Origin: Paramecium sonneborni
Taxonomy: Eukaryota > Ciliophora > Oligohymenophorea > Peniculida > Parameciidae
NCBI GenBank assembly: GCA_905182985.1
Contig: CAJJDN010000069.1
Span: 29,949-93,948 of the forward strand
Direction: 5' to 3'
DNA: 64,000 bases
The position numbers and the translations under genes are program-made. Each line of letters begins with the position of its first letter. Position 1 is the first letter of the stretch. The notes beneath the pieces are model-generated. The model had not been told where the DNA came from. It did no database searches and saw only the letters and a list, made by a program, of their open reading frames with translations. Shown in pieces: positions 53,202 through 55,010 of this stretch.

Positions 53202-55010
53202 ATGCAAGCAGAGATAAAAAATATTCCATTGAATTAAGGAAAATATACAACTTAATAAAGATTAGGTAGTGGTTCTTTTGGTGAAATTTATTTGGTGACA
53301 ACATAAGCAAATGAAATATTGGCAGCAAAATTTGTATAATTTGATTTTGAATAAATTTAGGAAGAAACTAAATCAAAACATCCTTAATTAGGATTTGAAT
53401 CAAAGGTTACAAAAGCATTGTAAGGAGGAAGTATGATTTATTATAAAGAAAAATAGTTGGGATTCCTGTACTTCATTATTTTGGATAAGAATCTGGATTA
53501 AATGTAATGATTATAGATTTACTGGGACCAAATTTAGAAGACTTATTCAATTTATGTTAAAGAAAGTTTTCATTAAAAACTGTAATCATGTTAGCAGATT
53601 AAATGATTTAAAGAGTTGAATATATGCATTCGAAAAGTTTTATACATAGAGATATTAAACCAGATAATTTTCTTATTGGATTAGGCAGAAAATCAAACAC
53701 TGTGGTATTTTATTAAATTAATATACTCAGTATATTCTAGATTTTGGTTTAAGTAAAAAATATAGAGACGCTAAAACACATTAACATATTCCATACAGAG
53801 AAAATAAAAATCTTACGGGTACAGCAAGATATGCTAGTATTAATGCACATCTTGGTATAGAATAATCTAGAAGAGATGATTTAGAAGCTATTGGATATGT
53901 TATGGTCTATTTATTAAGAAGTTATCTACCTTGGTAAGGAATTAAAGCAAATAATAAATAAGAAAAATATCATAAAATCATGGAAAAAAAAATGACTACT
54001 CCTGTTGAAGTTTTATGTAAGACTTTACCAAGTATTTTTTATTTATCATTTTAATAGTTGAATTCTCAACATATTTAAATTATTGTAGATCCTTAAGATT
54101 CGAAGATAAACCTGATTATAGTTTTCTTAGAAAAATGTTCAAAGAATTATTCTAAAAACATGGATATGATTGGGATTATTAATATGATTGGTGTCTAGCT
54201 ATTAATGGATAAAAAACTAATACTTATAATAATGGTAAAATCACAATCTAAGTTAATGCAAATTAATATGATGCTGATGAAAATCAACCTCCTATTACTA
54301 TCTAAATTAGTAAATCCTATTATTAATTATTTAAGATGAGAAAGTTTAAGATAAATAAATTGTTGAATCCAAAATTATTGAAAATAAATATTAAAGAGTC
54401 TAGAATCCAGAAAATGATATAGATTAAACTGAATAAATTGCTAGAAATTTAATGGGAAATGAATAATTTAATAAATAACAAGATTAGATTAAAAAGAATC
54501 TTATGGGTGATAGTGAAATCAAATTATCAATCCCTAATAATACAAGTTAAAAAAATTAAGCACCAATTGAAACAGTTTTCAATCCTAGGGTTGTTATTTA
54601 GGTATTTAATTAAATAATTTTAATGTAGAAAAAAACAATTTATGAAAGATTAGGCCAGAGTATGGCTATTGATTTTACAGTTGATAAGCTATTACAAAAA
54701 TTGTAGAATGATCCAAAATTAAAAAGCTTCTTTGTTAAATCAGATATGAAGAAACTAAATTCTTAGATGTAAGCTTTTCTTACAATGCTTTTTGGAGGGT
54801 ATAAATTAAAAATGATTTAGACCTTCAAATTATATGGGAAGAGATATGTTAGAAGCTCATAGAGGATTGGGTATTGATGATACTCATTTCAATCTTGTAG
54901 TAAAACATTTAAGTGATACTCTTGTAAATTTAGCACTACCAGAAGATATAGTTGCAGAAGTTGTTGAAGTATGTGAATCTCTTAGAGATGATGTACTTGG
55001 AAAAGGATGA
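53202..55010 (+). CDS. Casein kinase 1 fused to a truncated hemoglobin
   Basis: One frame of 551 residues after six introns (53431-53456, 53705-53730, 54032-54057, 54310-54335, 54604-54630, 54799-54820). Residues 15-300 are a full CK1 domain: GSGSFGEIY (22-30), Lys43, HRDIKPDNFLI (from 140), DFGLSKKY, NLTGTARYASIN, QSRRDDLEAIGYV, LPWQGIK and FRPD-like FEDKPDYSFLRKMF. A polar, Gln/Asn-rich linker follows. From about residue 432 comes a 2-over-2 globin: YERLGQSMAIDF, FFVKSDMKKL, AFLTMLFGGP and MLEAHRGLG with the proximal His. No TGA separates them, and a 27-nt in-frame GTA...TAG intron sits at the boundary. Stop TGA 55008-55010. Each domain is certain; the fusion rests on the read-through frame. 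Confidence 0.85.

What the first reader, a model, noticed from the sequence alone, without database searches (positions are those of the whole stretch)
53202..55010. Casein kinase 1 and truncated hemoglobin read as one polypeptide
The CK1 frame runs through a polar linker into a complete truncated globin without any TGA. A canonical 27-nt GTA...TAG intron (54604-54630) lies at the domain border and keeps the frame either way. If the genes were separate, the kinase would have no stop codon. I know of no described kinase-globin fusion of this kind; a heme gas or redox sensor controlling a kinase is an obvious hypothesis.
Basis: partly seen in the sequence, partly recalled or inferred. Interest (0 to 1): 0.9.

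Follow-up and report, generated by a model that had tools for sequence, protein, structure and literature searches.

The report
Casein kinase fused to truncated hemoglobin
In the ciliate Paramecium a single predicted gene encodes a casein kinase 1 joined to a small hemoglobin, a pairing also present in the predicted proteins of three named Paramecium species but absent from the Tetrahymena, Ichthyophthirius and Pseudocohnilembus relatives examined, and the hemoglobin part would likely act as a heme-based switch (perhaps for nitric oxide) on the kinase.

Summary
It is not a sequencing or assembly accident. A second copy on contig C62 of the same genome gives the same 542-residue length with no indel in 1629 coding bases, while three of the seven introns differ in length. 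The globin has 1 nonsynonymous and 30 synonymous changes. The same architecture is annotated in P. octaurelia, P. tetraurelia and P. bursaria. Four CK1 proteins from Tetrahymena, Ichthyophthirius and Pseudocohnilembus lack the globin. The two Tetrahymena ones end in VFNMN(N/D), matching the TVFN just before the globin here, so the fusion probably arose by loss of the ancestral CK1 stop. All five fused globins keep the proximal His but have apolar residues at three distal positions that are Tyr/Gln/Gln in Tetrahymena hemoglobin; that Tyr is kept in 16 of 16 other globin loci found here. I infer a heme-based sensor kinase with poor O2 retention. Heme binding and regulation are untested. A 2020 paper mentions 2/2 globin-protein kinase fusions in general, so this is a new variant of a known kind.

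The parts
53202..55010 (+). CK1-linker-truncated globin gene, 8 exons, 542 aa, TGA stop
53241..54200 (+). CK1 catalytic domain (residues 14-298, introns included); K43, E57, HRDIKPDN 131-138, DFG 154-156
   Evidence: human CK1delta E=1.2e-135, residues 14-298; same residues invariant among 9 homologues (window protein itself not a row there), except Phe155
54201..54305 (+). CK1 tail, residues 299-333, ITIQ-type motif shared with Tetrahymena CK1 (VTLH)
54306..54601 (+). polar linker, residues 334-423 (contains intron 54310-54335); tail plus linker 68% identical to P. bursaria (80 of 117)
54572..54583 (+). TVFN (residues 414-417), matching the C-terminal ends TVFNMNN and AVFNMND of two Tetrahymena CK1 proteins; inferred relic of the ancestral CK1 end
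54602..54628 (+). 27-nt GTA...TAG intron exactly at the linker/globin border; open also if retained (9 extra residues)
   Evidence: spliced out in P0001 and P0002
54623..54625 (+). ATG inside the border intron, in frame with the globin, not present in the C62 copy (ATA)
54629..55010 (+). group I truncated globin domain, residues 424-542 (contains intron 54799-54820); F8 His493, CD1 Phe458 (position names recalled), distal Leu445/Leu466/Met470
53334..53360 (+). intron 1, 27 nt (26 in C62)
53431..53456 (+). intron 2, 26 nt
53705..53730 (+). intron 3, 26 nt, 3' end CAG
54032..54057 (+). intron 4, 26 nt
54310..54335 (+). intron 5, 26 nt, 3' end AAG (25 nt in C62)
54799..54820 (+). intron 7, 22 nt (21 in C62)

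Best explanation
This is a CK1 gene fused in frame to a group I truncated globin, and it likely works as a heme-based sensor kinase in which ligand binding at the globin heme would change how the CK1 tail and linker restrain the catalytic domain. Shown by sequence: intact kinase residues, a conserved linker, a globin with the proximal His, and apolar residues at three distal positions that are Tyr/Gln/Gln in Tetrahymena hemoglobin. Inferred: heme is bound; with no distal hydrogen-bond donors O2 is held weakly, so NO, CO or heme/redox state is the more likely signal; the signal passes through the conserved linker to CK1. Also inferred: the fusion arose in an ancestor of the sampled Paramecium species when the stop of an upstream CK1 gene was lost and its reading ran into a downstream globin gene.
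For: One frame of 542 codons after splicing. C62 copy: same product length, no coding indel, 3 of 7 introns of different length; nonsynonymous/synonymous changes 4/10 in residues 1-299, 0/1 in 300-333, 2/14 in the linker, 1/30 in the globin. Same architecture in P. octaurelia, P. tetraurelia and P. bursaria. No globin match in Tetrahymena P0014 and P0031 or Ichthyophthirius P0034 (hmmscan), nor PF01152 listed for Pseudocohnilembus P0032. Tetrahymena ends TVFNMNN/AVFNMND match TVFN before the globin. Fused kinases monophyletic 100/99. F8 His in 5 of 5 fused globins; positions Y25/Q46/Q50 are L/L/M in four and F/V/L in P. bursaria; Tyr25 in 16 of 16 other globin loci. PMC4720485 passages: very hydrophobic distal pockets give the fastest O2 loss, and low affinity in clade N goes with Leu at E7, E11 and G8. 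PMC11086627 abstract: autophosphorylated CK1 tails compete with substrates.
Against: No transcript, protein, heme or kinase data were available. The globin is the least conserved part between the window and P. bursaria (45% against 84% for the kinase). The four aurelia-type rows lack the second Gly of the AB motif (LGQ for LGG). LeuE7 alone does not mean weak O2 binding: M. tuberculosis GlbN has LeuE7 and high O2 affinity (PMC7082302 passage). Nine of the 16 other globins also have Val at position 46, so only the losses at 25 and 50 are special to the fused ones. P. bursaria has a His at T. pyriformis position 49 whose role is unknown. The AlphaFold2 model gives the globin blocks mean pLDDT of only 38-74. 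The P. tetraurelia model differs from the others over a short stretch of the kinase end, so annotated models are not free of error.
Confidence: 0.55

Rival explanations
1. The fusion is real but the globin has lost heme sensing and serves as a heme-free scaffold or docking domain for CK1, as the heme-free globin domain of bacterial RsbR does (recalled).
For: All three distal polar positions are lost, the AB GG motif is altered in the four aurelia-type rows, and the globin diverges fast between species (45%).
Against: Proximal His kept in 5 of 5 fused globins; only 1 nonsynonymous against 30 synonymous changes between the two copies; distal residues stay apolar rather than drifting at random, though only two independent states are seen.
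Confidence: 0.25
2. The globin is an NO-detoxifying or O2-supplying enzyme domain merely carried by the kinase and does not regulate it.
For: NO dioxygenation is called a more common and ancient globin function than O2 transport (PMC3820574, start of abstract listing).
Against: An apolar pocket without B10 Tyr should hold O2 poorly, and NO dioxygenation needs bound O2 (established chemistry, recalled); the linker between the parts is conserved (68%).
Confidence: 0.15
3. Two separate genes, with the globin starting at its own ATG (54623), misread as one.
For: An in-frame ATG sits just before the globin (MQKKTIYERL), where globins at C114, C90 and C89 start MQNKTIFDKL. No transcript was seen.
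Against: The ATG is ATA in C62; the kinase would have no stop in either copy; the linker is under selection (2 nonsynonymous, 14 synonymous); three named species carry annotated fused models with the globin joined after the same linker.
Confidence: 0.04

Closest known systems
Chimeric (multidomain) 2/2 truncated hemoglobins
   Same: A 2/2 globin in one chain with another domain; PMC7082302 names protein kinase and nitrate reductase fusions (passage)
   Different: Whether CK1 or Paramecium is among the published cases could not be checked; two of the papers it cites (Vinogradov 2011, Hade 2017) are not held
Bacterial globin-coupled sensors
   Same: Globin plus signalling output domain
   Different: They use 3/3 globins (PMC7082302 passage) with variable C-terminal domains (PMC1457004 abstract); here the globin is of the 2/2 family and C-terminal. 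PMC1457004 states that its 2006 census found none in eukaryotes
CK1 delta/epsilon with autoinhibitory tail
   Same: Catalytic domain, tail position
   Different: Tail runs on into a globin domain
Tetrahymena pyriformis group I truncated hemoglobin (3aq5-3aq9)
   Same: Fold family, proximal His
   Different: Tyr25/Gln46/Gln50 replaced by apolar residues; fused to a kinase
Heme-regulated eIF2alpha kinase
   Same: Eukaryotic kinase with heme binding
   Different: Its heme domain is not recognised as a globin according to PMC1457004 (passage)

Membership tests
Casein kinase 1 | Closest solved relatives are CK1, over the whole catalytic domain | tested here: met
   human CK1delta, E=1.2e-135, residues 14-298
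Casein kinase 1 | Catalytic Lys, Glu, HRD and DFG residues | tested here: met
   K43, E57, HRD 131-133, D154 and G156 present; invariant in the 9-row alignment of homologues, (Phe155 is Tyr in some rows)
Casein kinase 1 | Kinase activity | not testable with these tools
   needs expressed protein
Group I truncated hemoglobin | PF01152 match above curated cut-off | tested here: met
   53.1 bits against 21; best solved relatives group 1 truncated hemoglobins
Group I truncated hemoglobin | Proximal His F8 | tested here: met
   His493; 5 of 5 fused rows
Group I truncated hemoglobin | Two GG motifs | tested here: inconclusive
   EF GG kept in 5 of 5; AB GG kept in P. bursaria, LGQ in 4 aurelia-type rows
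Group I truncated hemoglobin | Tyr B10 and polar E7/E11 (typical, not obligatory) | tested here: not met
   L/L/M or F/V/L
Group I truncated hemoglobin | 2/2 helical fold binding heme | tested here: inconclusive
   series of helices but low confidence, no fold comparison run; heme not testable
Globin-coupled sensor | 3/3 sensor-family globin | tested here: not met
   PF01152 and truncated hemoglobin relatives
Globin-coupled sensor | N-terminal globin with C-terminal output | tested here: not met
   globin is C-terminal
Globin-coupled sensor | Ligand-controlled output | not testable with these tools
   bench assay needed

The most novel reading that the evidence does not exclude
Paramecium evolved a eukaryotic counterpart of the bacterial globin-coupled sensors from scratch: loss of a CK1 stop captured a neighbouring truncated globin, whose pocket then shed its O2-holding residues, giving a CK1 controlled by NO, CO or heme state that has been kept across the genus.
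Probability: 0.4. Interest if true: 0.85.

Novelty: new variant of a known kind. Interest (0 to 1): 0.62.

Why it matters
A 2006 census found no globin-coupled sensors in eukaryotes (PMC1457004, passage). A conserved CK1-globin fusion in a laboratory ciliate would be a directly testable eukaryotic gas or heme sensor kinase, with two copies in this genome, relatives without the globin in Tetrahymena, and a visible route of origin by stop loss.

Tried and rejected
Assembly or sequencing artefact: rejected, because the C62 copy and three named species agree.

Fusion present at other globin loci: not found for CK1. Of 18 globin loci found (16 others plus C69 and C62; lower bounds by the tool's own note), a clear CK1 sits upstream only at C69 and C62, within the 1.2-3.2 kb of upstream sequence held for the other 16. 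At C114, C90 and C89 a different, CAMK-like kinase (my label, from no family search) lies upstream on the same strand, but its frame ends in TGA with 113-121 bases left before the globin ATG. Own ATG starts were checked for only 7 of the 16; the other nine were not modelled at their N-terminus, so 'standalone' is unproven for them.

Search for fusions elsewhere: (globin region, proteins of similar length) gave 2 hits of 218 candidates; it missed P. bursaria, so absence elsewhere is not shown. Of 120 rows listed out of 7989 scored, 3 carry PF01152. One search (globin alone) gave 2 hits of 6 candidates, short ENA fragments (80% and 85% identity) whose kinase side cannot be seen.

Structure: one AlphaFold2 job on P0001 with 23 of the 122 proteins held (mean pLDDT 65.8). 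The globin is weakly modelled, so no fold search was run.

Literature: ten searches; one search found no paper. No title or abstract start in the listings was about a CK1-globin fusion, but listings were partial for (20 of 271; 9 of 10; 8 of 15; 12 of 61). Passages were read in PMC1457004, PMC4720485, PMC7082302, PMC5745447, PMC13331133, PMC3820574 and PMC4620153; PMC4439042 was searched for terms with no hit; of PMC11086627 only the abstract and section list were read.

Full report
What is there. The stretch 53202-55010 starts with ATG and ends with TGA. Read in the ciliate code without splicing the frame is broken. With seven predicted introns of 22-27 bases removed it encodes 542 residues. 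Introns 3 and 5 end in CAG and AAG; the annotated homologues read the same residues across those places, and the C62 copy has the same ends.

Domains. Pfam gives Pkinase and Bac_globin well above their cut-offs. The kinase matches human CK1delta over residues 14-298 with E=1.2e-135, and the catalytic residues it carries are invariant in a 9-row alignment of homologues, except that DFG is DYG in some. The globin matches solved group 1 truncated hemoglobins, best the Tetrahymena ones, E=5e-24.

One gene, not two. The absence of TGA in the tail and linker is weak by itself: 123 or 306 of 5000 random stretches of 124 codons are open too. Comparison decides. The same genome holds a second copy on contig C62. 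Both products have 542 residues with no coding indel, although introns 1, 5 and 7 differ by one base in length. Nonsynonymous/synonymous differences are 4/10 in residues 1-299, 0/1 in 300-333, 2/14 in the linker and 1/30 in the globin, so linker and globin are under strong purifying selection. The ATG inside the border intron, which could start a separate globin, is ATA in C62.

Other species. A search with the globin region found P. octaurelia (542 aa) and P. tetraurelia (536 aa) proteins with the same architecture, which UniRef names casein kinase I. The P. tetraurelia model differs from the others over a short stretch at the kinase end. A search with the kinase and linker found P. bursaria (535 aa), also with the globin. 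Identity of the window protein to P. bursaria is 84% in the kinase (248 of 297), 68% in tail plus linker (80 of 117) and 45% in the globin (53 of 119). The five fused kinases form one clade (100/99), in a group with the Tetrahymena, Ichthyophthirius and Pseudocohnilembus proteins and one unnamed EukProt protein (88/84, not a starred branch). The fused globins also group together (85/96, not starred; P. bursaria is a long branch).

Origin. Tetrahymena P0014 and P0031 and Ichthyophthirius P0034 have no globin match, and Pseudocohnilembus P0032 has no PF01152 listed. The two Tetrahymena proteins end in DTVFNMNN and EAVFNMND. Of the 122 proteins held at that point, they and one further protein (P0037, ending QTIFDN) were the only ones with such an end; a fourth pattern hit, P0095, ends otherwise. 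ETVFN stands a few residues before the globin in all five fused rows. I infer that the ancestral CK1 stop was lost and the frame ran on into a globin gene, with the border intron at the seam. The alternative, loss of the globin in the other ciliates, is not excluded. A kinase just ahead of a globin on one strand is seen elsewhere in this genome: at C114, C90 and C89 a different kinase ends in TGA with 113-121 bases left before a globin ATG, and related kinase pieces lie upstream of the globin at C71 and C70.

The pocket. In one search the solved Tetrahymena sequences 3aq7, 3aq8 and 3aq9 differ from 3aq5 at Y25, Q46 and Q50; that these are B10, E7 and E11 is recalled. The four aurelia-type fused globins have Leu, Leu, Met there and P. 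bursaria has Phe, Val, Leu. Tyr25 is kept in 16 of 16 other globin loci of this genome; at position 46 seven of the 16 have Gln and nine Val, and at position 50 twelve have Gln and four Thr. So Val or Leu at 46 is not special to the fused globins, while the losses at 25 and 50 are. The proximal His is kept in all five fused rows, as is the FF pair at positions 37-38, the second of which I take for CD1 (recalled). PMC4720485 (passages) reports that very hydrophobic distal pockets give the fastest O2 dissociation and that low affinity in group N goes with Leu at E7, E11 and G8. PMC7082302 (passage) warns that LeuE7 alone is compatible with high affinity. I did not assign G8.

How it would work. 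Tails of fission yeast Hhp1 and human CK1epsilon are autophosphorylated and compete with substrates (PMC11086627 abstract). Here the tail runs through a conserved linker into a globin. I infer that heme ligation alters the globin and, through the linker, the restraint of the kinase. With no distal hydrogen-bond donor, NO, CO or heme/redox state is a likelier signal than tight O2 binding. None of this is shown.

Known or new. PMC7082302 states in one sentence that 2/2 globins fused to protein kinase have been seen in genome data, citing four papers, two of which I tried and found not held. PMC1457004 (2006) found no globin-coupled sensors in eukaryotes. I therefore file this as a new variant of chimeric truncated hemoglobins, not as a member of the globin-coupled sensors, whose globin class and domain order it does not share.

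Limits. No transcript, heme or activity data exist here. The species of the window is inferred to be of the P. aurelia group from 94-98% identity of the globin region to P. tetraurelia and P. octaurelia. Searches for fusions outside Paramecium were not exhaustive.

Noticed in passing
window 53401-54300 against C62 (L019 about 1750-2650): This tract is 98-100% identical between the two copies in 150-base bins, including two identical introns, while the rest of the gene is 87-97%; looks like recent gene conversion (or assembly cross-talk). Synonymous divergence is 0.057 in residues 1-299 but 0.568 in the globin.
   Followed up: partly
L019, L014, L016, L020, L024, L029, L030: A single N sits at the seam of a tandem duplication of about 1.0-1.3 kb in each of these loci (L029 and L030 overlap and show the same N); probably unmerged contig overlaps in the assembly rather than true duplications. 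The extra partial CK1 copy at C62:76899-77561 is one of them. The window has single Ns too (17432, 20033, 30285, 33347), not examined.
   Followed up: partly
L009, L013, L016, L012, L015: A CAMK-like kinase gene (my label) lies just upstream of a truncated globin gene on the same strand at C114, C90, C89 and, more diverged, C71 and C70: an old neighbouring pair kept through duplications.
   Followed up: partly
window 53705-53730 and 54310-54335: Predicted introns ending in CAG and AAG instead of the usual Paramecium TAG, with the same ends in C62.
   Followed up: partly
window 55046-55550: Downstream gene-like stretch about 75-79% identical to C62; its coding frame was not worked out in either copy.
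   Followed up: no
linker residues 372-395 of the fused protein: Two similar motifs, NLMGNEQ and NLMGDSE, conserved in P. bursaria as NLIGSEQ and NLIGDSE; tail plus linker is better conserved than the globin.
   Followed up: no
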